From Umbilicaria muhlenbergii (taxonomy: Eukaryota > Ascomycota > Lecanoromycetes > Umbilicariales > Umbilicariaceae): a stretch of DNA of 64,000 nucleotides. The stretch covers positions 4,900,927-4,964,926 of the forward strand of contig KK106981.1 in NCBI GenBank assembly GCA_000611775.1. Direction: 5' to 3'. Shown piece by piece: positions 22,831-47,249 of the stretch; positions within the stretch are counted from its first letter, which is position 1; every line of letters starts with the position of its first letter. Both the position numbers and the translations under genes were made by a program. The notes beneath the pieces are model-generated. The model searched no databases and was not told the DNA's origin. It saw nothing but the letters and a program-made list of their open reading frames with translations.

Positions 22831-22899
22831 TATAAGTGATTTACAGTAAGGATCAAGAGTATCAGGTTTTCTTTATATTAACAGAAAAAAACTTACTAC

Positions 22900-23545: not shown

Positions 23546-23680
23546 ACAAGACATATGCTACAAGGCCTGACTTAATTATAAAGTCAAAAGAATTGTACAA
23601 ATGTGAAAGGTTAACCTTTACAACATTTACACAATTAAAACTAAAACACAGCTATTTTAAATTATATCTTTACAGATTAC
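23546..23680 (+). mobile_element. LINE copy, left piece
   Basis: This matches 50133-50268 in the longer LINE copy (words acaagacatatg, ttgtacaaatgtgaaaggtt, acacagctattttaaat) and stops at cagattac. The sequence that should follow (ctacatatgaaaataat) resumes at 46824, 23.1 kb to the right and on the same strand. The left edge is a normal 5' truncation. Confidence 0.88.
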
Positions 23681-23689
23681 AGTACAGCC

Positions 23690-23900
23690 TGTACAGTAAA
23701 AAGAATAACAGTTGTATAACAGTTGTATAAGGTTGCATAAAGTTGTACAATCTTTGCATAATAATTTCATAACTGCTGCACATCTGTCATGTAAAGGTTG
23801 CACAACTATATGCAACTTTATGCAACTGTCATGCAACCGCTGCATTATAATTACAACGTCAACATCATATTGGTTGCAACAACTCATAACCATTATGTGA
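23690..23900. repeat. Left subterminal repeat zone
   Basis: Many short units of the type gttgcataa, ttgtataac and tgcaac occur here. The right end of the insertion (46600-46815) holds the same kinds of word, including the complement-symmetric gttatgcaa and gcataac. Subterminal repeats of this sort commonly bind transposase in large DNA transposons, but the role here is inferred. Confidence 0.65.
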
Positions 23901-24239
23901 GCATTTATCCACTGAAATTTCAAGTCACGGTTGTAGCAGCAATACTGGTTATGATGTAATTGCAATGTAGAGTAAGTCAGCTTTATTGATTATAAATAAT
24001 GTACTCCTCAGTCACACTCTAATACATAACTCTCATTATCATTCAGCTCATGAGACAATCATGTTTCATTCATATTCACATCAATGTAATATAGACCTTC
24101 ACTCCTCTGTAGAGCAAGCAGTTCATATATGCTCTGTCTTCATGTTACTCAGTGTAACAGAAGATTCAGAACAGGGTCTTTCTCACTCTCTGCACATATG
24201 ACATTCATGATCATGAACATGTATTGTCGCTTGTGATAT

Positions 24240-24430
24240 ATGCAAGCAAAACATTGCATCAGGTGAATGTTGATCATTCAAGTCTTCACCTTTGTCTTTA
24301 CCTCTACCTCTGCTTCTGTCTCCACTTCAGCTTCAGCTTTGATTTGAATTCAGGTTCAGGTTTAAGTTCAGGTTAAGTATTGATATTGATATTAATCATG
24401 ATTGTGATCATGAGCATGAGCGTCAGCTTC
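24240..24430. repeat. Pyrimidine-rich low-complexity tract
   Basis: Runs such as cctctacctctgcttctgtc and ggttcaggtttaagttcagg lie about 590 bases from the left end of the large insertion. The complementary purine-rich tract is about 430-570 bases from the right end (46255-46395), which makes the subterminal layout roughly mirror-symmetric. Confidence 0.55.
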
Positions 24431-24739
24431 ATACCTCACTCAAATGTAATCCTTTGTGTTGTGTACTGTCTGTTGATTCATCATCCTAGTGAAGCCTTCA
24501 TTAGCATACACATTAACTGAATAAAGTGAGGTCTAGATCCTCATGATTATCAGTTAATAAGCTGCTCACTAATCAGTGTATGTCAATTGACATGCTCATT
24601 TGAGTTGTTGAGATCTTATGTCTCACACCTTGCATAGCCTGTAGTTCAAATTGAAGGCCTGAGCCAGGTGTTGTTGAAAGATATGTTGCAGTGACAGATT
24701 AACTGACTTGATCATCTGATGTATGCTATAGAAGTGACG

Positions 24740-27700
24740 TGAGAGCTTAAATCTAAAGACAGACAAACTGACTTTTCAGTGACTGTCATTCTCTACAATC
24801 TGAATTCTCTTCTCCTCCTCATCATCATCCTCATCAAGCTCATGCTCCCTCACTGAAAGAAAGCTGTTGAGGACAGTGAAGCAGTGTTTCTTTAAAACTG
24901 TCAGACACTTCATAACCTCTGAGTGTGTGTGATCTCAAGCACCTGCAAGCTCAAGTCATAAAGACTGCTTGACAACATTCTTGATGAAGATATAATTCAT
25001 AAGGTTTGAGGGTGCAACTGCATCTGCCATTGCCTTTGTCTCCTTATAACTCATCAGTGAGGTATCATAGCAGGTGATAAACAGTTTGTACTTATGCTTA
25101 AGCTCCTCAGCAAGGATGTTATAATTCATGACTGTGATGTACTCTCTTGCAGTGTCTGCTAGGTGCAAGCCGGCATGTATGTTGAGAAGACTTATATACA
25201 TGAAGTCAGTTATGTAAAGACTGATATAGATGTCAAAGGACTTAATAGCTTCTTCAACTTGAATTTTGTCTTACATCAGCTTGAGGTCTCAACATTTAGT
25301 TGCTCACTGATGTTTAATGACTCATCAGCGTCTAATGGCTCTCTGACTTTCAATAATGACTGATCAATGATTGCATCTGACTCATTCAATACTTCTCTGT
25401 CTGCAGGTGATGTCTCAGTGAAGGCTTCATCAGCAGCCTTCATCATGCAATGCATCAGTTGTTGATAACATCTTCAGGTCTTGACAATCAGATGATGTAG
25501 TGTGTTTGAATGTGTATATCATTGACTTTCAACAGTGGTATTGAACTGTGCAATGATTCAAAAAGCGCGGATTATGAGCAGCATGAGGGGAAGTTGTGTG
25601 ATGTTAATGTGATTGAGGTGTTTGTCTGCTGCATGAAGGAATGATAGATGAAATTAATTAACATTGACATGACTGTGTAAAATCAGTGACATCAGGATTG
25701 TAACTCTACCTGCCTCAGAAAGTGATCATGACCAGATGTAATACATTGAACTTTAAATCTTGAGTCATGATGAAGAATACCTGAATGTTTGAAAGACCTT
25801 GAGATAATAAGAGCCCCTCTTCTTTGTGAGGATGACAAAGAACAACAGGCTCTGTAATATTCATTTTAAACCTCATTATTCAGAGTGAGGTGCGTCATAT
25901 TCTGATGAGATGATGAGGTCAAGTGCTGATGTCAACATTATCATGATTGATGATTGTTGCTCCTGCAGGTCATATTTCTTCAGGAATTTCACCTTCTCTG
26001 CATCAATCAACTCAGCAGCCTCATCTCTTAAACTTACAGTCTCTCAGTGATATTAATCACAACTCATAATGTTGTACTGTAAATTAACCTGTTGATCACT
26101 GAGACAGAAGCAGCTTTGACAGCCTGTCTTTACACTGTGATGAAGAAATCCTTCATTGTCAGCTTGTTAAGACATGTCTTTAATAATGATCATGATGAAT
26201 GCACAAATTAGTGTATCTTCTTCATGTATATTGAGAGTACACCCCGTGTCAAGCTGCTGCATTGATGTGATAAATGCCTCAACAACATCACTTATGTCTG
26301 CCTCATGTGAGTTTAGTGTAAGTGAAAAAATGTTGATCACTTTTCATCTCTCTTCATATGAAAGACTGACTGAAATCAGATAGAAGGCTTTGAGGGCTTG
26401 ATAATTATTTTAATGTACACTGAAGTCATTAATAAAGAGAATAAATAGTAGAGAGCATATTGACATGAAAAAAGTGTTGATGACATGATCTCATCTGAAG
26501 TGATTTACCTTCAGCTCTGCTTAAGTTAAATGTAGCTGATTTCAAGCCTGCATTATATTGTTGCTGACAACACGTCTGATGTAGAAGTGATCATCAGAAT
26601 ACATAATTTCCTCATTCATAAACTCTTAATCAAAAAACACATTCAGGTGATAAATAATCATATTTAATGTGAGTTTTAAACATATGTCCTTCATAAGAAA
26701 CAGCTCATGATCATCATGATTTAATAACACTGCTGAGAGAAGGAAGATGAGGTCTGCTAAAATTATCTGCATTGTAAAAACAATCTCACTCACATGCCTG
26801 ACTGTGAATCTATGATCTCAATCAATGAAGGTGATTCAGCCTTTGAAATATTCTTTCATAAGTTGAAATCATATGATGTCCTCTGAAATCAACAGCTCAC
26901 CGGCCTGACTATATGCATTATCATCAGAAGTAGCTTAAATTGATGAACCTCACACTCTGAAGTGTCATAACTCAGTTGACTCATCTTGATATTCAGTCAT
27001 GTCAAAATGCATCTTGTCTCATAGCTGATATGCAGAGAGGATTCAGGTAATCAGATTCAATGAATCATATTAATATTATCAGTTTGTTCATTTCAATATG
27101 TCCTCTCTCTTGTCCTTTGCTTCAGCTGATAGGGAGGGTTGCTTCTCAATGAAGACTGTCAATGACTTTCACATTAATCACAACATTAATAGATGTCATT
27201 GAACCTGACATTTTATGATATCAAGTTTGGCAGGGAGGTGCAAGATGTTAATGTTCAACATAAAAGAATCTGCATCAAGCTCCTCAGGATTAACTTGCTT
27301 CAGTGAAGCCTTCATCAAGTCAAGTGACATATGAAGGACTTCTTAAAGATGTGTATAATTCATTCTGAATATCTCAGACTTCTCACATCATAAACTGAGG
27401 GCAAGAACTTCTGAAGGCAGAGTATATTCAAAGGTAATAATCTCAATGATCTCAAATGATGAAGTTTCAGAGGCTGCTGATCATCTATCAGAGTCATCAA
27501 GATCATCAGAGTCATCAAGAGTGAAGCCTTCAAGATCATCAGAATTTTCAATATTAATGAGATTTAACTCATAATTCATCAAAGGTGCAGATTCTGCTTT
27601 AAAATATAAATATTCCTGATCATCCTGTATGCATCAGTAGATGTTGCTTTGAAGATGAAACATACAATATCATAAAGGTCTTTTCAAACTTCATTGCTCT

Positions 27701-27960
27701 CATTGCTCCCTTGCTCATCTTGACTGTCATTATTGAATTGACTAATATCATCATTCATGCGTTCAGGCTCATGATCATCAGGCTCATGATCATCAGGCTC
27801 ATGTGAATCATTGAGCTCATGTGAGTCATTGAGCTCATGTGGGTTGTTGAGCTCATGTGGGTCATCAAGCTCATGTGGGTTGAGTTCATGTGAGTTGAGT
27901 TCATGTGAGTTGAGTTCATATGAGTCTTTATGATCATATGCTCCTGCTGGTGTTCAGGTC
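24740..27960 (-). pseudogene. KDZ/CACTA-like transposase, decayed
   Basis: A minus-strand coding relic with many in-frame TGA and other stops. In reading order it has an N-terminal acidic repeat region (15-bp units, 27770-27917), an acidic serine-rich linker (27.4-27.6 kb), and a long conserved core. Readable words in the core are DHFYIRRVVSNN (about 26.6 kb), ILFINDFSVH (about 26.43 kb), FYLISVSLSYEER, DVVEAFITSMQQLD, then DM..QADNEGFLHHS and GCQSCF (26.18-26.10 kb). The C-terminal part reads LHLADTAREYITVMNYN followed by LAEELKHKYK (25.2-25.07 kb). The pattern of a DDE-type core followed by a GxLxHS..GCxxC-like element and a late ELKHK block resembles fungal KDZ/Plavaka and other CACTA-like transposases. 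Exact family assignment rests on memory of such proteins. It probably mobilised the large element that contains it. Confidence 0.6.
27770..27917 (-). repeat. 15-bp tandem repeat, acidic peptide repeat
   Basis: About ten units of the type gagctcatgtgagtt/gtca. On the minus strand one frame gives SHELND/PHELDD-type acidic repeats at the N terminus of the transposase relic. Another frame gives methionine/threonine/histidine repeats over 60 open codons and is probably a shadow. Confidence 0.75.
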
Positions 27961-27999
27961 ACTCACTCAAGATGATCAACATTTCTTGAAGTCATGATG

Positions 28000-28829
28000 T
28001 GTGATGAAGCGGGGTAGATGCTATAGGACAGCAGAATAAATAAAAATCAAGAAAATGACAAGTGAGTGACTCATCAAAAAAAGTATGCAAAATTTTAATG
28101 ATTTCTGATTATAGCAGGCGCTCAACATGATAAGCTGAGCACTCATCATGCATCTTTCATTTGTTTAAAAGATACATGTATGAAGGCAGAACTCATCTGA
28201 GACTTGAACTCAGCACTGTTACATTTCACATTATCAATGAGCCACACTGATTTATTTAATTTTCTAAACTAGTTTTTAAAATATATTGTTTAGTTTTTAA
28301 TGAGCAGCTTTGAGTTTTTGAACCTGAAATGAATGTGCTCAAGAAGCTCAAATCAGAAAGTGTGTGTACATGTAAGAACTGAATATTTGATGACTACATG
28401 TAACAGGCTGATTCATCATCATAGAAGACTTATGACTTGAACATTAAGTGATGCATGATGATCCTCTTGATTAATCAACTTCACACACTTTTTAAATCCT
28501 TTCCCTTTTCAGCTTCCTGATCAACAAGCTCCTCATCAAGACTATATTAATCACTCATAAGCAACACATTATATATATCACTAATCATGACAATCACTGA
28601 GAACCGCCAACCGCCAACTGTCAATCATCAATCACAGAAGAAACCATGAAAACTGTTGTGAAACTCATAAAGAGGAAATCACAGAGAGGAATATGAAATC
28701 ACTGAAAAGAACATGAAATCACTGAGGAGAAATCAAGCACTACTGTATGTGTGATGAGCATGTAATGCCTTTAACCACTAGCTAGTTAGCATCAAGCCTT
28801 AATAACATCAAGAAGCTTACATATCATTG
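28000..28829. other. Spacer between transposase and helicase genes
   Basis: About 0.8 kb without a convincing frame, upstream of the minus-strand transposase and downstream of the minus-strand helicase. It should hold the transposase promoter. A tRNA-like relic lies at 28183-28252, and short repeats such as gaaatcactgaaaagaac occur near 28680-28735. Confidence 0.45.
28183..28252 (-). tRNA. tRNA-like relic (A and B boxes only)
   Basis: On the minus strand a B-box/T-arm shape, ctgag-ttcaagt-ctcag (complement of 28197-28213), gives a perfect 5-bp stem with a 7-base loop. It lies about 30 bases after an A-box-like tggctcattgataa. That spacing and order are those of a tRNA or tRNA-derived SINE promoter. 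No pairing acceptor stem and no convincing anticodon stem were found, so it is at best a decayed tRNA or SINE head. Confidence 0.3.
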
Positions 28830-31800
28830 AGAGTCACCCTGATGAAACCTTCATTAAGTTTCAGAAGAATCACTGTCATCCTCAGTCTTCTCCCCTGTCA
28901 CCTCAGACTCAGAATCAGAACTCATGACAACATGCTCACTCTTGATGAACTTGATGATTCACTGAAGGATGTTCTCAGTTTCTGCATGCTTAAAATTCAG
29001 CTTCTCTTGTACCTCAGGTGTGTTCTCCTGATATAGTTTTTCATTGTATATGAGAAAGTCTTCAAGGTCAAGGTCATCATCATAAGCCTTCATATTTCAT
29101 CCTTCATCATGATCATTGAACAACTGTTTGTTCAATTCAGTCATCACAGTGAGGAGAGACTTGTGAATATTATTCTCAACAAGATGATCATTGAATGTAT
29201 TTTTATTATGAATATTAAAAATGTTAATGATCTTGCTTGAGTTCCTCATTCAGCGTGCATGACTGACAGCTTGCATGGTCATTGAATCACTCAGTGAAGT
29301 GTTAAAGTTAACAACATTTCAACATCACTTTTGTAGATTAAGCTCACAGGAGCTGATCATGTAAGACTTAATAAAAATCATGTCAGTTTTGTTACTGTCA
29401 TTAAAGGTTGAGATCACCTTGAATCACTCATCTGATGACATCTCAGTGTAAAAGATGATACAGTTAACTTCAGCAAGCTGCAATGCATCATACAGTAGCA
29501 ATTGAGTGACAGGATACATGCATCATACAATTACTTTCTGTTGATCATGAACAACAACATCAATCAGGAGGATCAATATGATCTGAAGCTTAAAAAAATC
29601 ATGACACAACATGATGAGAAGCTTAAGTCAGTCATTCTGTGAAAAAAGCTCAAAGTCTGATACCTTCTTGAAAATTTCTTTCAGCCATCATCAAATAAAG
29701 ATGAAGTCAGTCACTCATCATCACATTGTTGAGACTCTAATCATGTGCTCAATGTGCAAGAAGTAAACTTAAATACAACATAAAAATATCTTGCACAGTG
29801 TGAGGAAGCTTCACTTTGATTGATGAGTCTTTTGATCAGAGTAGATCAGCTTGTGATAAAGTTAATCTGCTTGTTCTTGATATAATTTTTGTTCAGAAAT
29901 GATGTATTAAGTCTTAATGATTTTAACATTAATGCATGAAAGGTTCTCTCTGATGATCTTTAAGTTATTGAACAGGATTTTAAAAGTATGAGTGCACTGA
30001 AGTATGCACTCAGTTCACAACTTTTGCAGATGAGCTTCAGTGATTGATGTTGATATATAAGGTGAATAAATTCATTGCTTTGCTGCACACATAATCAATT
30101 GTAGAACTGTTGCAGCGTGTTCAGCTGACAGATCATAAGAGTTGAAGGTGTTAAAATTAATGTCAAAGTCAAGTTCATACTCAATAAGCTTAACTGATGA
30201 TCATAGAGACTCAGCGTTAATGAGTTTCAGTAGCTTATGATAACCACTGAAATCTTGAGCTTCAGCCATAGTCATAGACGCAGTTAATGTCATGTAGAAT
30301 GACTTTAATCAGGACAATGAAGTATTAAGCTGAGTCTTATCATTTTTGATAACATGTGCTTCATTCAGAATGATGATGTTGAATTGATCATGCAGATCAT
30401 GTGATCAGTTCAGGTCATATTCCTGCATTTTGCTCTTAATTGCAGCCTTGAAGTAACTATTCTGAAGATGTCAACTTCACTGACCTTGAACCTCATGTCT
30501 TGCTGCTCAGGTCTGATATGTCATGATGATTACATTCTTCTCATTACTGTCATTGTCATTAAACAGGTGATGATTCTTGATCAGTGTTTAAAAAATGATG
30601 TTGAGTAAATCTTTTAACTGTGACTTGACATTTCTTTAATATTTTCAGACCTTAAGACCTGAGGTGACTCAGGCAATCTCCTCAATTCACTGATCAATGA
30701 GGCTGAGTGATATAATGATGATTATAGACTTCACGGCCTCCTGATCATCAGGGTTAACCTTGAATCATGCATTAACTCATTATAATATAGTTAGTCTTGA
30801 GCGCTTCAGTGAAGCCTTCATCAAGGGGGCCAGTTGAGAGTGAGGGCTTAACTTACAGACATGATATATTCAATCACAGTTCATGTTTTATCAAGTTTGA
30901 CACAGTCAGCAATGACACACTCATGAAGCAGACTGAGCTGAAAGATAATAATTGCATGAATGATCATGACTTGCCATATTTGAAGTCAGCAGGCAAAGGG
31001 CATACCCTTTAATTATGATCAGCTGAGGTTGACAATGTTAAAGTTGACACAGGCCTCAGCAACATCCTCTCACTGATAATGTTCATTGTTAAGTCAACTT
31101 TGCTGTTCATCAAACTTCACAGCAGCTGTCTCATCAAAGTCATTGTATGAGATGTTATTCTTTTTCATCATCTTTTGTACTTCATTCTCTCAAGTGATGA
31201 ACTGTGCATCATTGAAGCAATCATCTGCATATATGTGCTGAAGTTTAGTGACAAGATCATGTCAGGTGCTGATAATGTCAACTGCAGTATACAACATCAT
31301 GTGTTGTCATCAGTGATCTGTTATCTTAAGTGTAGGACTGATGTGTTTTAATTTTATATATTTAATGTTATCAATGACAGTACCTGCGTTTGATATAATG
31401 ACCTCAGTCTCATTAATCATCTCAATCTCTTGATCAGTAATTCATTTTTCTGCAGCTAGTGCTTCTTCTGTGATAAATTAACATGTGATTTAAGCAAGCT
31501 TGAAGTTACCTCACTCATCATCTTCTGTCTTGAAGTGAGATCATACTGATTGACTCTTGACTTGAAGTTCACTCTGAAATATGATTCTTTCCTCATCATC
31601 AATAAGCTTCTTTACATTAAATTCTTCCTCAGTCACTGCTGCAATTATCTGAGCTTTCTTCTTTCTCAGGATCTCATTTAAGGTTCATGTCTCATTGAAT
31701 GTCACCTTCCTGAAGTCTGACAGGTCATAGGAGAATCATTTTAATAATAATTAAACTTGATCATCAAGCTCAGAGTTTGTTAAACATTGCTCATAGAATA

Positions 31801-32160
31801 TCCTGTCACAAGAGGTGGTATTATCTTGTTTGATGCAGTAGAGGAAGTATGCATAATGATTAATGATGACTCAGTCTGACTTATCAATATGTCTTGCAGA
31901 GTATTTGACAAGTTTAATCTTCTCATCAGCAATCAGCTGCTTCTGAACAGTGTTTAAAGAGAACATTTTAAATCAGAGGATGCCTTTTTTCTTGACTTCT
32001 TCTCACTCCTTTGTGATGACCTCTTTGTCAAGTTTCATGAAAGCTGACTTGAACAATTTACTCTCTGCTCATGCTTATAACTCTTCTTTTGACTTTATAT
32101 CAAGAAACTTCACTAAGCGTTCTCAGTTCATTCATATGTTGTGAGTATTATGAGTCATGC
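28830..32160 (-). pseudogene. SNF2-like helicase/ATPase, decayed
   Basis: A minus-strand relic of a two-lobe SNF2-family ATPase, the class that moves along DNA or remodels nucleosomes. In reading order: an unrecognised N-terminal region (32.15-31.1 kb); a Q-motif-like region QIWQVMIIHAIIIFQLS ahead of a Walker A zone read as ADCVKLDKT (about 30.9 kb); Walker B/DEAH as LNEAHVIKN (30.33-30.38 kb); motif III as LTAS (about 30.3 kb); motif VI as QAVSHAR..RNSSKI followed by FNIHNKNTFNDHLVENNIH (29.29-29.11 kb); then an acidic tail rich in DSESE (28.87-29.0 kb). Several glycines of the family consensus are replaced as expected from GG decay, and TGA stops interrupt the frame. It lies inside the large transposon next to the transposase, so it is probably an accessory gene of that element, not a host copy. 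Confidence 0.7.
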
Positions 32161-33047
32161 TGATGATTATAAATAAGTTAGTTAACAGAGCTTTAGTGAA
32201 GGCTTCACTGAGGTGCACCTCAACATGTGATTATATTGAGCTGTCACGGAGGGGGTCAAGGTGGAGGGAGCAGATATGAATGAGGAGAAGATGAATGAAG
32301 TTAAGATGACATCATGAAGAAGAAGACTGTCATGAAAGAGAGTGAAGACTTTGATCTCTGAAGTGAGGTTTAATCAGAGGTTTGATGTTGAAAGCTTATG
32401 AATTCAACTTTGTACTTGAGATTGAATTCACCTTCAGTTCAGATTTCAAGGTCAAACTGAACTTCTGATTTAACTTCAGATCTTAAAGATATGATTTAAA
32501 GTTGAATTTAAGATGCACTTGATGAGCTGTAACAATCAACACGTCAATGATACAATCAGCACAAGGTAAGTGGTTGAATTGAAATAAAATGAAGATATTA
32601 ATGAGTTGATTAATGAAAGAGTTGATGAGGGTATTGATTGTTGACTTACACAGTGAATGTTGAGCAGTGAATGACTTGACTCAACATTTAAGTGCAGGCA
32701 TCAAGGGCTTCAAGGAAGACTTCATCAGATCAGAATAAAAACTGATAACAGATTTCTGAACAAAGGAATAAGATGATTAGCATTGATGTATAGATGTGAG
32801 TTGAGACGGCAAATGTGAACTCTTTACTTATGTTAAAATATTAATGACAACAAATTTCTCAAATTATGACTGAATCACAATGATCAATAACCTCTGAATT
32901 GTTCACATCAATGAACATTGCCTGACTAGCTACAAACAGGCCCTGATGTTCAACTTCAGTGACATCATTCATTCATCATTCTTTTGCACAATAGTATTGC
33001 CTCAGCAAGCAAATGTTGTTTAGTTAATCACATCAAGCGCGCAGAAG
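32161..33047. promoter_or_regulatory. Divergent intergenic region
   Basis: About 0.9 kb between the start of the minus-strand helicase relic and the plus-strand coding region that follows. No frame or motif was recognised. By position it should contain promoters for both directions. A short stretch near 32240-32275 keeps ggaggggg and acgg, unusually G-rich for this region. Confidence 0.35.
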
Positions 33048-34138
33048 ATGAAGAAGAAGATTAAGCAGAAGACAGTTATGTATGCTTACAAAGCATTAAA
33101 CATCACTGTCTCAGGCTTGTGTAAGTACCTTAATCAACTTGAGCATGTGTGCATTATTAACTTTCTCATCTCCTTCACAGTTCATCTCCTCTGTGCTGTC
33201 ATATACTTTGTCAGCTGCCTCATCAGCCGCCTTAATTACTTCTGTTGATGAGGCTCAGTTGACAATAGATTTGAAGCTCAGCATATTCAGCACTAACAAA
33301 AGTGTCAACATTAAGAATCAGAAGGAGGATCAGAAGCAGAATAATAAAAACAAGAATAACACAAGAAAGAATCTTGAGGAGAAGACTATGAAAGATAATA
33401 ATGAAGACAACAGTGAAAATGATAAATTTAATCTGAAAGTGACTGATGTTGTGTGACCTCTTTATGAAAGACAATAATGAAGACAACAGTGAAAATGATA
33501 AATTTAATCTGAAAGTGACTGATGTTGTGTGACCTCTTGACTTATAAAGGCCTCAGATGTTGATTTGTTTAATGATGTCATCAAATTCAGATCTGATTAA
33601 GCACTGATAATGAGGCTTTAAAATAAAGTCTCTTGATGGCTGAAGTAATCACTCACTAGTCAACCTCCCTGCATAGTATGATGTAGATACTCAGCACTGT
33701 AGGTTAATATAATCTCTCAGTCAAGAGAGTCACATCATCAAACCTCTGATTAAAATGTCACACCCTCAATGACAGACACATCAAGGGATGAGTTGTTAAA
33801 TTCTTGATCTGAGCAAGATCATCAACGCTGTATCAATCATGCTTTAAATGATGAGAGTGATGAGGACATGATAATCAGTTCACCTCTGAAAAAGGTATGT
33901 TTGCTTGTATCTTTGATAAATGAAAGGGCCTAACATCATTCAGAGGATAAACATCATTCAGAGGATAAACATTATATCATTTATGACTGTAACTGAACAT
34001 AATGCACCTACCTCATCATCACAGAGTTCACAACATTTATCAGCATCTCAACCTCACGGCCTAAGAGCCACTGCTGACGCTCAGTCAAGGAAGAGAGTAT
34101 GAGATGATATTAATGACACTTTGTCTCAATCAGAACTG
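33048..34138 (+). pseudogene. Third gene of the large element, 5' part
   Basis: Plus-strand coding-like sequence of unknown function. It includes an open frame at 33139-33456 with a hydrophobic/serine-rich first half and a charged N/K/E/D-rich second half (for example NQKEDQKQNNKNK). Further on, around 33.85-33.9 kb, an acidic DESDEDMIISSPLKK stretch can be read. The insertion of the 10.6-kb Gypsy at 34139 interrupts it, and the plus-strand coding at 44760-46168 is the likely continuation on the other side. No domain was recognised. Confidence 0.4.
33388..33539. repeat. 76-bp near-perfect tandem duplication
   Basis: Two adjacent 76-base copies begin at 33388 and 33464 (atgaaagataataatgaaga / atgaaagacaataatgaaga), with a single C/T difference seen. 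It lies inside the third gene and repeats the peptide NNEDNSENDKFNLK. Confidence 0.9.
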
Positions 34139-34280
34139 TGCTAAGACTATGTCTTTCATTTATTGAGTTGTAAAAGCTTGCCTTCATTTCCTAGCAAGAT
34201 GTTTAACTTTTATGCTCAAGAAGATTAATTCTACTTGAGAAAGAGCTAAACCTACTTGAGAAAGTAAGTAGTTCATAACA
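34139..34280 (-). repeat. 3' LTR of the 10.6-kb Gypsy
   Basis: 142 bases matching 44618-44759 end to end, beginning tgctaagac and ending cataaca on the plus strand, preceded by the target copy aactg. Confidence 0.9.
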
Positions 34281-36700: not shown

Positions 36701-39700
36701 TTCTCTTCTGTGCTGATAAAGCTGTTTAGTGTGAGGCTTCATTCAAATCTGCCTCACTGATCTCCTTTTGACCTATAGATGTTTGAGTCATGAGGTCAGT
36801 TAAGTCATCATTTCAATCTTTCATGAGGTGATGATAAAGTTCATATAAAATAAGTTGTAAGAGCAGAATTACTAAAGGTCTCTTTCACATAAGTTTTTAT
36901 TATCTATCACTTGTAGTATCTTCTTAATTGAGCAAGATGTCAGGTCTTTCCTCTTCACTTTGTAAATGAGGTCTTTCATTGACAGAATGCTTTCATGTAT
37001 CTCTTATAACATGAAAGCTCCACCTGGTGATGACGGCTCAGCGTTTCACAATTCAGAATCACAGTGATGTATTAAGGAAATTTGCTTACTTGTAAGGTGA
37101 TGATTCTGTGTCTGCTCACTGCTTAATCATTTTTAAGCACTTTTTTTCTGTTATGTCTTGCAATACAACAAGCGCTCTGATATCACAAAACCACTGCGTG
37201 CAAAGAATGAGTAATGTAACATGCAAGCAAAGCTATTATAACCTGTAGATTACTTTCATGAAGGTTTGCCTCTGATTTTATCAGCAGCAATCTTCTCAAT
37301 CAGCTCATGTTCTCTCTTATACTCTTTTATTAAATTCTTTAAATTCCTTAACAGGTCCTCATCATATCATTGATTATGTACAGATGAGTAACTCTTTCAT
37401 CTGATTAAATATTCTGTTATGCTTTTGTTTTTCTTAATCTTTCAGTTTCTTCTACTTATCAGCTTTTCTACCTCATAATCATGTCATTCTGAATTGAACT
37501 CCTTTACTGATGATGAGTTGTTCAGTTGATTTATACACTCATAAAGGTCCTCTCCTTTAGGCGCTGACTTCAACTGAGTTATGAACATTATCAGATGTAT
37601 CTTTCAGTTCACTGATATGTCTAGATGATAAGTGAGGAGGCTTACTTTTTCAGTTATTTTAAGTGAATCAGCCCTTTGATTAAAGAGCTTTCAGTTTGTT
37701 ATAGATGAAAGTGTATACCTCTTATGAAGTTTTATGAAGACCTCATCATCAATCTTCATCAACAACAGTTGATGATGCTTGTTGTATTGTATCTTCACTT
37801 AAAAGTTGATAAAATTCACTGCTTCTTCAGCTTCCTTTCATATGATCACTCTGTCTTTGATGAAATCAGAGTCTGCTGTTTCACTTTCTCCTCTTAACAT
37901 GAAAAGAGTGTCTCTTAACCTGAATCTGTATATCACCTCATCTGATGATAACTTGATTGATGTGTTCTTCTGCTTATTGAGCTCTGATCTTAATCTTGAA
38001 AGATACTTCACTCAATTCACCTCAGGATTTTCAGTTAAAAAGTATCAGAGTGTTATCTTTGCAGTTTAATTAATTCTTTCTGATTGTTCATTCATTTGAG
38101 GATGATATGCTGTTGAGGTTAACATCTTTATCTTCAGTCTCATTGTTAATCCTTTTCAGAAATCTGACATAAACTTAAAGTCTCAGTCTGATATGATGAT
38201 GTCTGAGACTTCTCAGTCTGTGAGGCCTTCTAGCAGGACTCTTGCTCAGTCTTTCATTGTGTACATACTTTTTCCTGAAAGTAAAGTCACCTTCTTGAAG
38301 ACCTTGTCTGTGACTGAGAGCACAACATCAAACCTCTCTTTCATTGTCAGCAAGGCTAGAATGAAGTTTATTGTGATAATTCTGAAGGGGATGTTTTTTG
38401 TAATGATTGACATCATCAATCTGTATACAGCGTGCCTCTTGATTTGGTTGAGCTGACACTGATAATAATGATTGATGTATCTCTTGAGCCGCCTAAATAG
38501 CTTTCTTAGGTAAAGGTTGCTCATCACTGCATCATATGCTTGATGAAATTCACAGTGATGATTATCATCATGTGCTAACTTGAAGATCTTCTTCTTCAGT
38601 GTCTTTGAAATGCACAGTCATCTTCTCTCATCAAGTTCCTGGTAGTAGATTAACCTGTTAATTCAATGAAATTGAATGTTTTTCAGAGGCTCTGACTCTG
38701 CTGTCTCCTTTTGATCCTCAGTGTGCTTCTTCAATGCACTCAGTATCTTGCTTCATTGCTTATCTTCTTCATACATCTTCTTCAGCTTAGCCTGATAGTT
38801 CTGTGACAGTTTCATCAAGCTTACTTAAAAGGTGAACACTTCATCAAGGGTGCCCTCATCTGATGATGTTTCAACTCACTCATCAGCAGTCTTGCTTAAG
38901 AGCTTGAATAATGCATCTGATATGATATGCTGCTTCCCTGATCAGAACCTAATGTCTAGGTTGAAAGTTGACACATATTAAGATGCTCTCATTAAGTGTA
39001 GGTTGACTTTGTCTGTAGATGAGAAGAACAAGATTGTTTGCTTTGCTATGAAGATAATCACTGAGTGATCAGTGTAGATTATGATGAGTTTGACACAACT
39101 CTTCACTATGTGTCTTATTTTTTAAAGTGTTCATATCAAAGCTGTCACTTTCAGTTCTGTAAGTCAGTAGCTTCTCTCCATGTTATTTAATAACTTAAAT
39201 AGGAACATCACCAGTTCAATGCTTTTTTTAGAGAAGTCATTTCCCAAAGGATCTCCCTTAACATGATATATCATTATATCAAACCCTCACTGCTTAAAGT
39301 CATCTAAGTTGATGTATAATTGCCTTAATCAGTTAAAAAAGGTGAGAAAGGTTGACTTCTTAAAGCACTTCTGTAGAAGCTCAAAGAATTCCCTTTTTGT
39401 GACTGTTGAAGTGAGAGTGATCTTCTTTGTATAAGCTCTTCAATCATGATCATTTTTAACTGAGCAGTGTCTGAGGAGTTTTATCTTTTAATGTTGAAGA
39501 GGTTTTACTATCTGAGCGTAGTATGTTATGTATTGCTGAAGTCATTCAGTCAAGCCTAAGTAAATTTCCAATGAATCAAGAGTCTCAGGAAACTTTAAGT
39601 TTTTCAGAGCTGTTATCTTCTCCTTCATGATAAAATAACTGAATTCATTGACCCTTTGTCTTAGCAAAGTCACACTGAGGTATTTTATGAAGGACTTTAT

Positions 39701-42700
39701 TCCTTTTAAGTTTATTCTCATGTCCTGAAATAACTTCAGTATTACTCTGAGGTGAGCTGCGTGTTTTTTTAGCTCTTAAGAGTAGATCATGATATCATTT
39801 ATGTAGCCTTTAGAGAAGAATTTAAATGAGTGTAGTAAGTTGTTCATTTTACACTGTATATAAGGAGGTGAATTCTTGAACCTCATGATTATCATGTTAA
39901 ATCTCTCTGAGCCTTGATGAAAGATTATTGTTAACTTATGTCAGTCTTCTTCTTTTACTGATCATTGATGAAAGAAGCTGATGCAGTTCATAATGCTTAT
40001 GAACTTCAACCTGTGTACTGCTGATATGATTTCACTTTGTAGTGGTATAGAGTAGGCGTTCATGATTGTTATCTTATTCAGATCATGAATGTCAATGATT
40101 ACTCTTTCTTTCCTTGTAAGCTTCTTCTCTGAACTGAAAAACACTGTCTTTCATATCACAAAGACTGAGAAGCTAAAGGGAGTAAATTCATTAAATCAGG
40201 ACATTCTTTCTTGCTCATGCATCTTATTAAACTCCTCATCTATAACCGCTTATTCATTTGAACCCGTTGAATAGACATGATGAGAAAGTTTAGCAGCAGT
40301 AGACATATTTCAATTGATTGTAAGAAGTATCAACAGGTACTCTTCTGACAGAATGTTAATGATATCTTCAGTATCAGTTCAGATTTTAAAGAAAGCATTT
40401 ATGACTTTTGACAGCACAGCTACTGCCTCAGCATCCTTATAAACTGTAACTCTGTTAAGAAGCTTAGTCTCTGACTTATTTAAGTTTACTTTGACTGAAG
40501 TATACTTTGACTGAAGTATACTTTGCTGTCAAGGAATGATCTTTCATGTTGACAGGATAACACTCTTCTTCCTCATATTTAATAATGATTCTCATGTGAG
40601 TGCATCATGATAGTATCCTCTCCTGCTTTGAAGTGTTTTGAACGCATATAAAGGGTATGTTGAAGTTCACTATGTGAGTGTATGCTCCCTCAAGATCAGG
40701 TTTGAAGAGGAAGTCTTTATTTAAAAGTGAAGCATGATCATGAACTTTCACTGAGACCTTGTATGTTGATCTTGAAGGTATGATTAACCTTTTCATTATT
40801 TTAACAACTCATCACATCCTGATGTTGTCTTTCACTGTTACTTGAATTGATGCAACTAGATCTCAACAGCTTCAGATTATCATTCTTTTTTCAGATAAAT
40901 TTAAACAGATTCTTTCAGGCATCAGTATGTTAATTCTCATCAAGAACTTCATCTTCAGGTTATCTACAACATGAGCTTCTCTTCTCATGTGTGCCTTCAA
41001 TGGCTTGTCATTTATCATTTCATCAAGGAACACATTGAGAATGATGTACTCATCACTGATGTAATGAGTTGAGCTGATGCCGTGAACGCTTATGAGTTTA
41101 TTTACTTGAAGCACTTTTATCTCAGGGAGAGTTTCTTTAAGGAAGGATCAGTTTATCAATGATATTATGCAATTGAAGTTTATGCAAATCAGGATGACAA
41201 GACCTTCCATTGAGAAGAATGCTGATGTGATGACATAATGTCACTTGTTGAAGATCATCTCATTTTCAGTGAGCTTTAAGGCGTCTGACTCAATGACTGA
41301 GAAGCTAATCTTGAGTGATGTATCTTCACTCATCATGAGGTTTGCTTCTTGAGCAGATGACTTCACCTTTGATCTTTTCTCTATGAATTTGAAAGACCTC
41401 ATAGTATCAGCTTCTATTGAGTCTTTTGAAATGACTTCATTCATTTGAATAATTATACTTGAAAGCCTCTTTCCTTTGACTCAACATTTACTCACGTGGC
41501 GGTGAAGCTTGTTGTTCAAGGTAAAGGTGAATGCGCATCTCCTATAAGTGTAAGTAGTAGGCTTTGAAGGGCTTTTCATGTAATAAATCTTAATATAATT
41601 CATGTTCACTTAAGATCCTGACAGTCTATTCTTCTGACCTTTGAAGTGTTTCATCTTTAATTGACTGAGTGCTGAGGCTTGATTCTCATTATCTCTGAGC
41701 TGTAGTGAACTGTCAAACTGATTCATTTAAGATGCATGATAATCATAAGCTTTTGATATGTCATAGCTGAGTTCTCAATCATTCTCAGGGTAGAACTCAT
41801 CAGAATACTCATGATACACTGCTTGAGGAGAGCTGTAGTTGTTTCAGTTATCATAACTTCATTGACTCTGATAATTGTTTCAGTTTCCTTGAAACTCTTG
41901 ATTGTTTGACCTTTCATAAAATTAATTCAGAGTCACTTCAGTCATACCTGCAGTGATCTGAAGTTGTTCAGAGCGTGGCTCTGCTTGAATCTGAGTCATC
42001 AACTGAGGTTCAGATGAAGCTCCTTGATTCTGCTGTGAAGAATTGTAAGTGTTGTTCATTGCAAATGAAAGAGACTGATTAGGCGGAAACTGATACTGAT
42101 TAAAAAACAGTGTTTGAATAGGAAATTGAGCTTGATTAAGATACTGAAGCTGATTGAGATGCTGATAGAAAGGTTGATTGTTCTGAAAGATTTAAAAGAG
42201 TAAGAAGAATTATAAAGAAAGTCTTGATCTCTTTGATATTCTTAATATTCTTGTCCTTCTCTATTATAAAAGTTAAACTCATCTTGATTAAAAGATTAAT
42301 TTGTTGATTTGTTATTTCTTTCTTCATATCTTTCTTGTTCTCTATCATTGGCTTGAACTCAATTCATGAAGTTGTTTGACTTATCTTGAGGTTTATTGTT
42401 TTGATCTTGACATTCTGTTGATTTAATAACATTCTGTTTATGCTTCTTCATTGCATTTCACATCTCCCTTCAACTCTTTAATTCTTTAAAGAACTCTTGA
42501 AGTGTGATTCTTGACTTGAGCATTGCTGTGACTGTTTAAAGCTTGATGTCTAGACCTTGTCAGGCTCAAGTGAGTTGAGTTAAGAGATTAATTATGTCTG
42601 CTGCTTGAGCATACCTCATCATGTTTTGCAAATAGCCTTGAGGTTCCCTGATGTTATGAGCATCTGAAAGAGAGTAGTGTTTCTTGTTAAGCTGTTTCAA

Positions 42701-43259
42701 GGCCTTCATCATCATCATCTTGAAGCATTTTGCTAATTTAGAAGTGAACTTCATAAGAGGCATGTTTCTTAAAGCTCATCAAGTGAAGTCATCAAGTTCC
42801 TGTAAGTATCAGTTCAAGACATTGTCTTAAAAACATGTAAACAGATTCTCTGTCACCTTTTCTTCTTCTACAAGGAGGGCATAGTCTTCAACTCATTTAA
42901 TGAAAGTGTAGACTTCTTGATAGATAGTTTCTTTAAAGTTGAAGATAACATCTTCAGTTTCATATGATTCTGAAACATCAAGATGAAAGAAATCAAGGTT
43001 TAAAGCTCAGAAGTTAACAGGAGCTGTTACATGCAGAGTTGAATTTATTGATTTTAACACACCTGAAGGACCTGATGAATCTTGCAGGCTAAGCATCAAG
43101 TGAAGCTTTTCATCAAAAAGTTGAGACAAAACTTGAATTTGCTCTGAAGAAAAGGCTGTGAACATGTGTGAGTTATGAGTTGATGAGCTGAACTCAGAAG
43201 CTTCTGTATTCAACAGTTCATCTTGATTAATCATTTTGATTTGTGTCTGAATTTACTTA

Positions 43260-43480
43260 AGCTGATGTTTAAAATCTAGGTGTTCTCATTCTGCTCATTT
43301 TAACTTTAAGCATACTCATTTTAGACATTCTTGTTTAAATTGTTCTCATTCAAGATGTTGTTATTTACCTTGTTTCAACTTTAAGTGTTCTTGTTTGAGG
43401 CACTCTTGTTGTAGATGTTCTTGTTTCAGATGTTTCAACTTTAAGTGTTCTTCTTTTAGCAGGTGTCATTCCTTCTCAAG
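43260..43480 (-). repeat. Coiled-coil repeat zone upstream of gag
   Basis: Short repeats with gttctcatt/gttcttgttt and caactttaagtg words recur every 15-18 bases. On the minus strand they read as EHLK/QEHL-type units, typical of a charged coiled coil, and they precede the gag start region near 43234. Confidence 0.6.
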
Positions 43481-44617
43481 GTTTCATTCCTCAGAATGTT
43501 GAGCACGCCTCTCACTGCCTCTGTGAGTGAATTTCTTTTGATCATGTTCATCTCTGATCTTGTGTATAAGTCATCATTGAGCGTCTGCCTGATCTTGTGT
43601 TAATATATTTTCTCATGTCAATGATTCTTGTTCCTTCAGAAGAACATTGATTAGCTCTTTTTCTGCAAATATCCTTTCATAATCAAATGCTCTTTATTTG
43701 TCAGCCTGAACTGAAGTTAATTCTGACTCTTTACTCTTTTCTTTCAGCACTTCCTCTTCAATTCTAGTCAATTGAATTATTTCTTCTTTCGCAGAGGACT
43801 CTTCAGAGGGGAGGTTGATGATAAGTTGATATGTTTCAATTAACATGAAGTTTGTAATGAATCAGGCTTCTTCTTCTGATGAAAAGGCTGTTGAGGATTG
43901 AGATGCTTCAGTGATTGCTGTTGCAGACTCTGAAGAAATTTCTGATAAACTTGTAGAGGTTTTATCTTGAGTAGAGAGTGATTTTGTTAAAGCTCATGTG
44001 ATGAAGAGTTCTGTTATCAATGAGACATTGAATGAAGGTAAGTCATCTGCTTGAGAGAATGCAATGAAGTAAAGAGTCTCTCTGAGGGTAGAAGTTCTGA
44101 TATGAAATCTGTTAAGAGTGATGTGAAGAGGATTGCCTCTAGTACAGTTAATTAATTACTTTGAAGAAAATTTAAGCTTTGAAGTTCCTTGACTGAATGA
44201 ACTTCTGATAAAGCTTATGAATATTATTAATGCTTCTTGAAGACTTTTGATAGTTGACCTTGACCTTCCTGTTGGTTCAGGGGACGGCTCATAAGGGTAG
44301 TATCAGTGAACAATTTTCACGCAGAGATGATCAGTCTCTCTTAAAATTCTCACATTTGAAATTTCAGAGACTACAAACCAATGGAACTGATGCCTCAGAG
44401 TTATAACATTATCATCAAGCTCAGGTAATTCTTCTGAATTCAGTTTATCTGTCTCAAGAAGGTAGTAAGAAAGTAGTGATCAATTAAGTAAGTCAACTGA
44501 TGTTAAGTTAACAGGTTCAATAATGTCACCTGAGCTGACAGAGGACTGATTGTTCACTGAAGCAAACTGATTTCTGTCTAAAGACAGAGGACTTGAAAAT
44601 CAGATGTTATTATTAAA

Positions 44618-44759
44618 TGCTAAGACTACATCTTCTGTTTATTGAGTTGTAAAAGCTTGCCTTCATTTCCTAGTGAGATGTTTAGCTTTTATGCTCAAGA
44701 AGGTTAATCCTACTTGAGAAAGAGTTAAACTTACTTGAGAAAGTAAGTAGTCTGTAATA
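44618..44759 (-). repeat. 5' LTR of the 10.6-kb Gypsy
   Basis: Partner of the LTR at 34139-34280, same 142-base length, followed by the target copy aactg at 44760-44764. Confidence 0.9.
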
Positions 44760-46168
44760 AACTGAGTATGCAATCTTCAAGCTGAAGGTCAATAAACCGT
44801 GCCTCAATGAAGACTTCATTAAGTGACAGGTCTCAGCCTTCAGCATCATTGAATATCTGATAAGCTCAGAAATCAGTGAAGGCTTTATTAAGCTGCAGGT
44901 TACAACCTCAAACTCAGTCTTTAAATCAACAACCTCATTCTTTAGCAAGTCAGCAAGCTCAGCCTTCAAGTCAGCAAGCTCAACCTTCAAGTCAGCAACC
45001 TCATCTCTTGACAAGTCAGCAAACTCAGTCTGTGAGTCAACAACTTCATTCCTCATCAAGTCAACAATTTTATTCTTCATCAAGTCAACAATCCTGATCC
45101 TCATCAAGTCAACAACTCTGACTTTCATCAAGTCAACAGCTTCATTCCTCAACCTCATTAAACTTTTAACAAGCTCTATTCAATAAACTGTTAAACATCA
45201 GTTTCACGTCATGATCTGAAGACAGAGACAGCATGTTGAGCAGAAGTCAGAGTGACTCAATAATAACAAATGATACATTTGTGAATCAGAGCATCAATGA
45301 TGTCAAAGAGATGCTGAAGTCATATTCTCAGGCATATGAAGAACTTTTCATCACAGCTTAATGATGATTCTGTGTCACACTTTCTAATCTTAATGTGAAG
45401 CAGTCAGTGATGATGACATTTCTTGATATGTGAAAGAATCATCCTGTGTTCAAAGAAGGAGAAAAGAGGGTGTAAAGTGCATATAAGACTTAAAAAAACT
45501 GTATCCTCAAAGCATCTCTGACGTGAATTGAACACTACATCATCATCAACAACCTTGAAGACATTTGAGCTTTCAAACAGCTCAAGGATGAGGTCAATGC
45601 TGATTATTAAAATCATTGACTTAATTTCATCTTCAAGTTCATCAATGAGGTGATGAACTTTAAGGATGCATCATTCAACAGGCTACTCTTCTTATGTTAT
45701 GTGTTTATACAGTTAATTGTTCACTCTCAGATGACTCAACTGCTCAAGCAGAAGCTCTGAGATGTGATCATCTTAAAATACACTCAACAACATCTGCTGA
45801 ATATGTTTGATGCCTTCTGAAAAAAGGGGGAGTTCAAGGACCTGATCATGATTGATGACTTTTCAGAGAAGATGCTTGAACAGAGTCTGAGAAGAAACAT
45901 TTCTGTTGATCTGAATAATGATTCAGATGCAAGTCTTGATGCTGTGTTTTTTAACACAAGACATGATAAGCTGATGAAGCAGAAGAGGATCATGAAAGAT
46001 CATGATCATGAGAATATACAGAAAAACATGAAGGATGATCTTGAAGAAAAGAACATCAGTGAAGGCTTCATTAACATAAAGAACACTGATGAAGGCTTCA
46101 TTAACATAAAGAATGTCAGTGAAGACTTTGTTAACATAAATGACATCCTCAACAATGATCAGGCCTGA
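44760..46168 (+). pseudogene. Third gene of the large element, 3' part
   Basis: Plus-strand coding relic of unknown function. One reading frame carries, in order, a glutamine/serine-rich repeat (44876-45097, units like SSQQAQP), the segment FVNQSINDVKEMLKSYSQAYEEL (about 45278-45350, given as FVNQSIND then VKEMLKSYSQAYEEL), and an open stretch of 106 codons (45848-46168). That stretch begins MIDDFSEKMLEQSLRRN and ends in three copies of a roughly ten-residue repeat (SEGFINIKN-like, 46060-46150). Several stops interrupt the frame between these parts. No catalytic motif was recognised. It lies at the right end of the large transposon and points outward, as the transposase does on the left. Confidence 0.45.
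44905..45160. repeat. 21-24-bp tandem repeat
   Basis: About ten units of the type caagtcagcaacctcattct. The plus strand reads as a Q/S-rich repeat. The minus strand stays open over 158 codons (44682-45158) and reads as VADLKVELADL-type heptads. Which strand is the gene cannot be settled by periodicity alone; continuity of frame with 45848-46168 favours plus. Confidence 0.75.
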
Positions 46169-46254
46169 TATGATCAGCAATCATCACTCTCACATCAAAG
46201 GTGACAATTCAGTCAAAAGTGACAGCAATTCACAGAAGTTCAGCTGAGACTAAA

Positions 46255-46395
46255 TGATGATAATGACACTGAGGTGAGGGTGAGGTTGAGAGTGAAGCTG
46301 AGGATGAAGCTGTGAGGTGAAGCAGAGGAGGAAGCAGAGCAGTGAGGTGAAGTAAGAGAAAAAAATGAAGGAGGGGGAGAAAATTCAACAAAAAA
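46255..46395. repeat. Purine-rich low-complexity tract
   Basis: GA-rich sequence such as gaggtgagggtgaggttgag and gcagaggaggaagcagag. It mirrors the pyrimidine-rich tract near the left end of the large insertion. Confidence 0.6.
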
Positions 46396-46589
46396 AGTCA
46401 CTGCATTCTCTATTTCAAGTTGTCAGTCATCAGATGAGCTTGAGGATCTTGAGCTACTAAATGAGGAGAAATGAAGTATTATTTACTTGATTCTTATCAT
46501 GTCTCTGCTATATACCTTCAGTCTTCATTGCAACATTACAGTTGCTTTAGCTGCTTGAATCAGTCACTCATTCAAATCTGCAACTGTAA

Positions 46590-46820
46590 ATCAGTTATGC
46601 CCTGTCATTGAACATAATGTACATGTATGCCCTGTCACTGAAATCAGTTATGCCCCGTGTGCATGTATTTGTGATAATTATGTAATCATTGCATAAACTT
46701 TTATGATTGCATAACTTGTATGCAATAGTTATGCAGCTGTTGCATAACTGTATAATAATTGTATAACTGTAATGTAACTGTTGTATAACAGTTATGCAAT
46801 TATCATAGAGGCCCTTACAG
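46590..46820. repeat. Right subterminal repeat zone
   Basis: Repeated gttgcataac, gcataact and gtataactg words fill the last 230 bases of the large insertion before gaggcccttacag. The composition and words match the left zone at 23690-23900. Confidence 0.65.
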
Positions 46821-46823
46821 TAC

Positions 46824-47235
46824 TTACATATGAAAATAATCAATGTTTTCAGTGTAAGGTAAAATAGTCATCAGAGCATTTACTGTTAAATTGCAGGTAG
46901 TATAAACAAGAGCAGCAAGAGTTAAAACAAGAAATGCAAAAAGCAGGATTTACACAATTAACATTACAGTCACTACTTTGTACAAAGGAAGGAATTAAAA
47001 ATACTTTAATATTTTTAAAACACACAAAAATAAATACAGAGGGTTGAGGATGAAAATCAAGAAGTAAAGTGAGGAGATATTGAAAAAAATATTTAAAAAT
47101 GTGCAATTCTGACATCAATAACTGTTACAAAAGAAATTGATAAAACAAGCTGACTTGAGGTAATAAATACCTCACATATGTAAACTACACAGTGTCATAG
47201 TCTTAAACTGCATACACTTAATGAAGAAATAAAAA
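46824..47235 (+). mobile_element. LINE copy, right piece with A-rich tail
   Basis: Continues the LINE interrupted at 23680. It holds the C-terminal zinc motif region (HLLLNC word near 46880) and the common 3' end acctcacatatgtaaactac with cagtgtcatagtcttaaact, then an A-rich tail at about 47224-47237. It corresponds to 50269-50708 of the longer copy. Confidence 0.88.
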
Positions 47236-47249
47236 AAATCATGAGTTAT

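What the first reader, a model, noticed from the sequence alone, without database searches (positions are those of the whole stretch)
23681..46820. A 12.5-kb DNA transposon (23.1 kb with a nested Gypsy) carrying transposase, SNF2-like helicase and a third gene
The insertion is defined by the two halves of one LINE copy, so its edges are known to within a few bases. It holds a KDZ/CACTA-like transposase relic, an SNF2-like ATPase relic and a gene of unknown function with a Q/S-rich repeat and a SEGFINIKN repeat. An SNF2-type ATPase travelling with a cut-and-paste transposase is unusual. It could help the element open chromatin or resist silencing, but that is inference. The TIR and superfamily are unresolved, which leaves room for a poorly described family.
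Basis: partly seen in the sequence, partly recalled or inferred. Interest (0 to 1): 0.75.

Follow-up and report, generated by a model that had tools for sequence, protein, structure and literature searches.

The report
Decayed transposon carrying an SNF2 helicase
A dead 12.5-kb cut-and-paste jumping gene, probably from a fungus, lies inside another mobile element and carries remains of a transposase, a chromatin-remodelling-type ATPase and a third gene; this pairing is unusual but has been mentioned before, and only one copy could be seen.

Summary
Joined flanks of 23681-46820 match an uninterrupted LINE copy at 73 of 80 bases, leaving a TAC (or TA) duplication. A 10.6-kb LTR element (34139-44759, TSD AACTG) is nested inside, leaving about 12.5 kb. 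The minus strand holds an SNF2-family ATPase relic (Pfam SNF2-rel_dom E 1.7e-9; Helicase_C E 2e-4, under its cut-off) and a transposase relic. On the plus strand a third gene is interrupted by the LTR element, its frame in phase across it. KDZ does not fit: the duplication is 2-3 bp, and the transposase shows the D / D / C(2)C / H(3)H / E order that Kojima 2025 gives for the CACTA/EnSpm-Mirage-Chapaev-Transib (CMCT) clade. Ends are not CAC..GTG and no Pfam transposase model matched, so the lineage stays open. A palindrome, TGAAGSCTTCA, recurs 8 times in the DNA element and nowhere else in the window. SNF2 helicases in 'Inton' and 'Enton' transposons are mentioned in a 2013 paper, so there is precedent. 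Most likely an extinct CMCT-type transposon with its own remodelling ATPase, perhaps against silencing in a CpG-mutating genome; that function is inference. No host genome is held, so other copies could not be examined.

The parts
23681..46820 (.). Whole insertion: DNA transposon of about 12.5 kb plus a nested 10.6-kb LTR element
   Evidence: Joined flanks match the uninterrupted LINE copy at 73 of 80 bases
23678..23680 (+). Left target-site duplication TAC (or TA, 23678-23679)
46821..46823 (+). Right target-site duplication TAC (or TA, 46821-46822)
23681..23724 (+). Left terminal inverted repeat (imperfect); may start at the C at 23680
   Evidence: 45-bp ends score 30; 3 of 3987 random window 45-mers as high or higher
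46776..46820 (-). Right terminal inverted repeat (imperfect)
23712..23825 (.). Left subterminal cluster, five TTGYATAA/TTATRCAA octamers
46689..46799 (.). Right subterminal cluster, six octamers
24779..27953 (-). Transposase relic, CMCT type; outer limits by eye. Core frame 25866-26937 (INDF, KDMS, GCQSC); C-terminal frame 24779-25270 (HAGLH ... AEE)
   Evidence: stops: core 15 of 357 codons against 26-43 in other frames, C-terminal 2 of 164 against 7-18; simulated extremes 9 and 2; motif order; no Pfam hit
28836..32173 (-). SNF2-family ATPase relic. N-lobe profile match 30069-30743; C-lobe within 28836-29702; start near 32.15 kb by eye
   Evidence: Pfam SNF2-rel_dom E 4.6e-8 and 1.7e-9; Helicase_C E 2e-4, 22.1 bits, cut-off 23.5; SMARCA-family and RAD54-like chains in PDB, E 0.0016-0.0079
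33920..34138 (+). Third gene, part left of the LTR element (coding may begin further upstream, near 33.1 kb, by eye)
   Evidence: 1 stop in 73 codons against 6-10 in other frames; in phase with the right part
44765..46165 (+). Third gene, part right of the LTR element: S/Q-rich repeat, then a charged region with the SEGFINIKN repeat
   Evidence: 19 stops in 468 codons against 39-42 in the other five frames; no Pfam family apart from an LPP match at E 1.9
24490..46100 (.). Dispersed palindrome TGAAGSCTTCA: exact starts 24490, 25419, 27304, 27522, 30810, 32197, 46060, 46090; one mismatch at 28843, 44808, 44877 (the LTR element in between has no exact copy)
   Evidence: 8 of 8 exact copies of the window lie in the DNA element; 29 control palindromes of the same letters have 0 exact copies each. 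With one mismatch 11 in the DNA element; controls mean 0.66, highest 3
34139..44759 (-). Nested LTR retrotransposon relic, probably Gypsy type; LTRs 34139-34280 and 44618-44759; TSD AACTG 34134-34138 and 44760-44764
23546..23680 (+). Left half of the interrupted LINE copy
   Evidence: 92.6% identical to 50138-50272
46821..47238 (+). Right half of the interrupted LINE copy
   Evidence: 89% identical to 50270-50706; reverse transcriptase of the neighbouring LINE copy at 47709-48041, RVT_1 E 2.2e-6, 28.0 bits, cut-off 29.6

Best explanation
An extinct cut-and-paste DNA transposon of the CMCT clade (CACTA/EnSpm-like in the wide sense), 12.5 kb, that inserted into a LINE with a 2-3 bp duplication and was later hit by an LTR element inside its third gene. 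It carried three genes: a DDE transposase, an SNF2-family ATPase and a third protein. Shown: edges, duplication, nesting, SNF2 domain, third reading frame, element-specific repeats. Motif-level only: transposase class. Inferred: the transposase cut at the inverted ends and, alone or with the third protein, bound the subterminal TTGYATAA clusters; the SNF2 ATPase moved nucleosomes so that the element could be transcribed or cut in silenced, CpG-methylated chromatin, the same need that TET/JBP genes are proposed to serve in other fungal EnSpm and Plavaka elements. CpG mutation has since destroyed this copy.
For: Empty-site comparison and TAC/TA duplication; inverted ends and terminal clustering of the octamer; SNF2 profile match and C-lobe matches; transposase frames with INDF, KDMS, GCQSC, then HAGLH followed 19-20 residues later by E, in that order over about 1.3 kb of one strand, as in the CMCT description of PMC12730594 (passages, outline and sections 16, 22, 26, 34); third-gene frame in phase across the LTR element; CpG observed/expected 0.06-0.14 in the three genes, CpA and TpG raised.
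Against: Single copy; no genome held. No Pfam transposase model at E up to 1 or up to 5 for read-through pieces; no PDB hit at E up to 5. The D..C(2)C plus H(3-4)H..E combination turns up at one other place in the window by chance, so it is weak alone. The ends are not CAC..GTG, and the right end reads ..AG rather than ..TG. Stop counts do not single out the SNF2 frames: 30 of 480 where another frame has 23, 15 of 302 where another has 16, 9 of 252 where another also has 9; only the profile does. No PDB chain matched the N-lobe piece. CpG loss is equal in the nested LTR element (0.10), so it does not show that the genes share one age.
Confidence: 0.62

Rival explanations
1. The SNF2 gene is an accidental passenger: a host SNF2 gene captured once by a CMCT transposon, with no role in transposition.
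For: Only one copy is seen; fungi have many SNF2 genes and DNA transposons often capture genes (general knowledge).
Against: Matches to both ATPase lobes and, by eye, a long N-terminal extension, up to about 1,100 codons, not a fragment; the element-specific palindrome lies in and beside the SNF2 gene (30810 exact, 32197 exact, 28843 with one mismatch) as well as in the other genes, so the SNF2 stretch shares a feature of the rest of the element.
Confidence: 0.25
2. The SNF2 gene belongs to a separate element nested inside the transposon.
For: Nesting and repeats are frequent in this window.
Against: Self-comparison of 23681-46820 shows no direct or inverted repeat pair bracketing 28.8-32.2 kb; an insertion without repeats would be missed. 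The palindrome is shared with the rest of the element.
Confidence: 0.1
3. A KDZ (Kyakuja-Dileera-Zisupton) transposon, as the first reader suggested in part.
For: KDZ elements of fungi also carry chromatin-related cargo, TET/JBP (PMC12730594, abstract).
Against: Duplication is 2-3 bp, Zisupton makes 8 bp (passage); no Pfam hit; motif order is that of CMCT.
Confidence: 0.03

Closest known systems
CMCT clade of DNA transposons, fungal EnSpm and ESTA lineages (Kojima 2025, PMC12730594; outline, passages and sections 16, 22, 26, 34)
   Same: 2-3 bp duplication; DDE transposase with C(2)C and H(3)H between second D and E; some members carry a methylation-related gene (TET/JBP)
   Different: Cargo here is SNF2, not TET/JBP; termini CAGTA/CTGTA, not CAC..GTG; placement within the clade untested
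Inton and Enton transposons with SNF2 helicase (Kapitonov et al., mentioned in PMC3627910; one sentence seen)
   Same: An SNF2 helicase encoded inside a DNA transposon
   Different: Their transposases, termini and hosts are not described in the passage seen, so identity cannot be judged
AcademH and KolobokH (mentioned in PMC10799480, passages seen)
   Same: Helicase-bearing DNA transposons; AcademH occurs in fungi
   Different: Their helicase domains are given there as DEAD and Helicase_C; here SNF2-rel_dom is the best profile. The AcademH paper itself is not held
VANDAL elements with VANC anti-silencing proteins (PMC10398659, abstract and outline seen)
   Same: A transposon that carries its own anti-silencing gene, which acts through repeats in its noncoding parts: a model for how this might work
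   Different: VANC is not an ATPase and VANDALs are Mutator-like (both recalled); Arabidopsis

Membership tests
CMCT clade | target-site duplication of 2-5 bp | tested here: met
   TAC or TA
CMCT clade | C(2)C and H(3-4)H between second D and catalytic E | tested here: met
   GCQSC near 26.1 kb and HAGLH + 19-20 residues + E near 25.15 kb, minus strand; motif level only, the two parts lie in different frames, and one chance pair occurs elsewhere in the window
CMCT clade | 5'-CA..TG-3' termini (most members) | tested here: inconclusive
   Left CA only if the duplication is TA; right end is ..CAG
EnSpm/CACTA proper | CAC..GTG termini with 3-bp duplication | tested here: not met
   Ends CAGTA/CTGTA; a 3-bp TAC duplication is possible
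EnSpm/CACTA proper | transposase matches a curated transposase profile | tested here: not met
   No Pfam transposase hit in six X-masked frames of 23681-34138 or in read-through pieces; heavy decay lowers the power of this test
ESTA | TA duplication and placement in the ESTA branch of the transposase tree | tested here: inconclusive
   TA or TAC; no relatives to build a tree
KDZ | 8-bp duplication (known for Zisupton) | tested here: not met
   2-3 bp
SNF2-family ATPase | SNF2-related N-lobe | tested here: met
   PF00176 E 1.7e-9, 37.6 bits, cut-off 24.9
SNF2-family ATPase | Helicase_C lobe | tested here: inconclusive
   PF00271 E 2e-4, 22.1 bits, just under cut-off 23.5; alignment to a SMARCA-family chain, E 0.0016
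Inton/Enton | their transposase and termini | not testable with these tools
   No description or sequence in the passages found
AcademH | Academ transposase | not tested
   No Academ reference at hand

The most novel reading that the evidence does not exclude
A distinct lineage of CMCT transposons whose standard gene set is transposase + SNF2 remodeller + sequence-specific DNA-binding protein, where the third protein guides the remodeller to the element's own repeats (the subterminal octamers, or the palindrome TGAAGSCTTCA that is spread in and beside all three genes and found nowhere else in the window): a self-contained anti-silencing machine that acts on nucleosomes, parallel to the TET/JBP route on methylcytosine.
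Probability: 0.22. Interest if true: 0.75.

Novelty: new variant of a known kind. Interest (0 to 1): 0.45.

Why it matters
Fungal DNA transposons are known to carry TET/JBP dioxygenases, thought to undo methylation-based silencing. An SNF2-type remodeller carried in the same way would be a second, nucleosome-level means of escape, testable wherever an intact family exists.

Tried and rejected
Whole-genome search for more copies: not possible, no genome held. Viral-contig scans with relic proteins (one search used the wrong frame, 33 the right one) found 1, 2, 9 and 6 pattern stretches, none a relative. Degenerate-DNA motif scans of viral contigs found 0; of genome contigs 5 bacterial stretches, which I take for chance: tblastn of four relic pieces gave only two alignments, of 19 and 28 residues, E 0.06 and 0.24, the first over the motif itself. 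Megablast of 24700-26700 against plasmids: none. AlphaFold2 of the transposase core without relatives: mean pLDDT 35.8, useless, not taken further. PDB search of the transposase core and of the SNF2 N-lobe piece: nothing. In one search six of nine rows (G-protein alpha chains, E 0.07-0.19) were set aside as chance. Rfam on the whole window: nothing. Translated search for the four transposase and SNF2 pieces in 1-23000, 47301-64000 and the LTR element: two alignments, of 27 and 15 residues, at E 0.7 and 1.0; no DNA copies at E 1e-3. X-masked whole frames of the LINE regions gave no Pfam hit at 0.1; the open stretch did. Weak Pfam matches set aside: ResIII 0.048 (same place as SNF2), Dicer_dimer 0.05, EP400_N 0.02, WWE 0.2, UCH 0.56, LPP 1.9, DUF6447, DUF2381 and Snurportin 0.06-0.07. 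A 9-bp repeat TTACAGTAC at both edges was considered as a longer duplication and rejected: both uninterrupted LINE copies lack the extra bases. A PIF/Harbinger-type TTA duplication fails for the same reason. Ten paper searches: 'SNF2 + KDZ + transposon' and 'EnSpm + SNF2 + transposase' gave 0 papers; most subscription journals are not held, so this is no proof of absence. Gene limits, and the resemblance of the transposase to ascomycete proteins, are by eye or memory.

After the filing check I added (palindrome, LTR identity) and raised interest from 0.42 to 0.45 for the palindrome; no other odds were changed.
Full report
What was checked. The window has 64,000 bases, about 32% G+C, with CpG at about a tenth of expectation and CpA and TpG raised, except 19000-23680 where CpG is 0.41. 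Only two stop-free stretches of 150 codons or more exist: this is a graveyard of mobile elements. No host genome is held, so everything rests on this one copy plus libraries and papers.

Edges. A LINE-like element (reverse transcriptase at 47709-48041, RVT_1 E 2.2e-6, 28.0 bits, cut-off 29.6) has copies around 50.1 and 51.2 kb, a tandem pair, that run straight through the place where another copy is interrupted at 23680/46821. Over all junctions tried, the joined 40+40-base flanks match copy A at 73 of 80 (five equivalent junctions) and copy B at up to 68 of 80; TAC (or TA) stands on both sides. A 9-bp duplication is excluded by both uninterrupted copies.

Ends. The two 45-bp termini align with a score of 30; 3 of 3987 random window 45-mers and 0 of 4000 shuffles reach that. 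Taking the C at 23680 with the element, they read CAGTACAGCCTGTA and CTGTAAGGGCCTCTA. Behind them, the octamer TTGYATAA/TTATRCAA occurs 5 and 6 times within about 220 bp of the left and right ends and nowhere else in the DNA element; 4 further copies are in the nested LTR element and 7 outside, of 22 in the window (motif chosen after seeing the ends). Subterminal repeats of this kind are transposase-protein binding sites in plant CACTA elements (recalled).

A dispersed palindrome. In a count of 11-letter words, TGAAGSCTTCA is the commonest word of the DNA element and is absent from the rest of the window: 8 exact copies, all 8 in the DNA element, 0 in the LTR element, 0 outside. With one mismatch there are 18, of which 11 in the DNA element, 3 in the LTR element and 4 outside. 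Twenty-nine control palindromes of the same letters have no exact copy and, with one mismatch, a mean of 0.66 and at most 3 in the DNA element. Similarity fades within a few bases of the core (consensus TCAGTGAAGSCTTCATTAAG). Copies lie in or beside all three genes, and within the third gene's frame they are read in two different phases (SMKTSLS and SVKALLS; SEGFINIKN), so the conservation is of DNA, not protein. A binding site or a small palindromic insert are both possible.

Nested element. 34139-44759 is an LTR retrotransposon: LTRs of 142 bp, 126 of 142 identical, TSD AACTG, with RT_RNaseH (E 1.1e-6) and Integrase_H2C2 (1.1e-4, under its cut-off) on the minus strand, probably Gypsy.

SNF2 gene. 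On the minus strand, SNF2-rel_dom matches 30069-30743 with X at the stops (E 4.6e-8) and with stops read as residues (E 1.7e-9). The following piece matches Helicase_C (E 2e-4, 22.1 bits, cut-off 23.5) and, in PDB, two SMARCA-family chains and a RAD54-like chain (E 0.0016, 0.0045, 0.0079; six further rows are chance). The N-lobe piece matched no PDB chain. By eye the frame extends to about 32.15 kb, with a relic of motif I near 31.0 kb. Stop counts do not pick out these frames. The gene is dead.

Transposase. No Pfam transposase family matched. The frame 25866-26937 has 15 stops in 357 codons against 26-43 in the others, and 24779-25270 has 2 in 164 against 7-18; simulated lowest frames average 19.2 and 6.6, extremes 9 and 2. 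In order they hold INDF (first D, by eye), KDMS (second D), GCQSC, then HAGLH followed 19-20 residues later by E. Kojima (PMC12730594; [quoted passage not shown] A window-wide scan for the paired motif found this pair and one other place, with two overlapping matches taken for chance, so the motif supports but does not prove the class. KDZ is disfavoured: Zisupton makes 8-bp duplications. EnSpm proper is not met at the ends; ESTA (TA duplications) is possible.

Third gene. On the plus strand the frame starting at 44762 has 19 stops in 468 codons against 39-42 in the other five (simulations: mean 30.2 per frame, mean lowest frame 22.2, extreme 13). The stretch left of the LTR element (33920-34138) has 1 stop in 73 codons against 6-10. 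Across the insertion the frame is in phase...NDTLSQSEL|SMQSSS.... So the LTR element hit a coding gene, and the claim of a third gene is strengthened. No Pfam family matched in the frames examined, apart from an LPP match at E 1.9.

Do the genes belong together? They lie between the transposon's ends, no repeat pair brackets the SNF2 gene, and the palindrome runs through the SNF2 stretch as through the others. CpG observed/expected is 0.08 in transposase and SNF2 and 0.06-0.14 in the third gene, but also 0.10 in the nested LTR element and 0.12 in the left flank: saturated, hence no clock. Co-occurrence in other copies is untested.

How it may work. Shown: structure. Inferred: in a genome that methylates and mutates CpG in repeats, an element with its own SNF2 ATPase could keep its promoter and ends accessible. 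The nearest parallels are TET/JBP genes carried by EnSpm, Plavaka and other fungal transposons, which Kojima proposes to counter methylation (not validated experimentally, as he says), and VANC proteins of VANDAL elements, which act on repeats in noncoding regions (PMC10398659, abstract). [quoted passage not shown]). Another SNF2-transposase link, the primate CSB-PGBD3 fusion, was seen in a listing with the start of its abstract (PMC3459987); that CSB is an SNF2-family ATPase is recalled.

Verdict. A real and well-delimited element; class CMCT-like, lineage open; cargo unusual but with precedent; function unproven. New variant of a known kind.

Noticed in passing
52262-58183 (with partial copies at 1-524): Large inverted arms (53034-53413 with 57661-58040, and 53554-53858 with 57305-57609, each 97% complementary), with 57-bp tandem arrays at 52319-52702 and 56665-57025: looks like a foldback-type element or a recent inverted duplication.
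   Followed up: no
19702-20140: Minisatellite of about 12/37 bp (AAGCCGTTTTGG) around a run of N (19935-20033). The stretch 19000-23680 keeps CpG (O/E 0.41) in an otherwise CpG-depleted window.
   Followed up: no
22035-22436: 90-bp tandem repeat, 4.5 copies, 91% matches, open in one frame over part of its length (EASRDEYINTMNTEIDDTTETSAVHSLHAQ), next to the interrupted LINE copy.
   Followed up: no
33387-33538: Near-perfect 76-bp tandem duplication (99%) upstream of the third gene; by its identity younger than the decay around it, and not a multiple of three.
   Followed up: no
24490, 25419, 27304, 27522, 30810, 32197, 46060, 46090: Palindrome TGAAGSCTTCA: 8 exact copies, all in the DNA transposon, in several reading phases; binding site or small palindromic insert unresolved.
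   Followed up: partly
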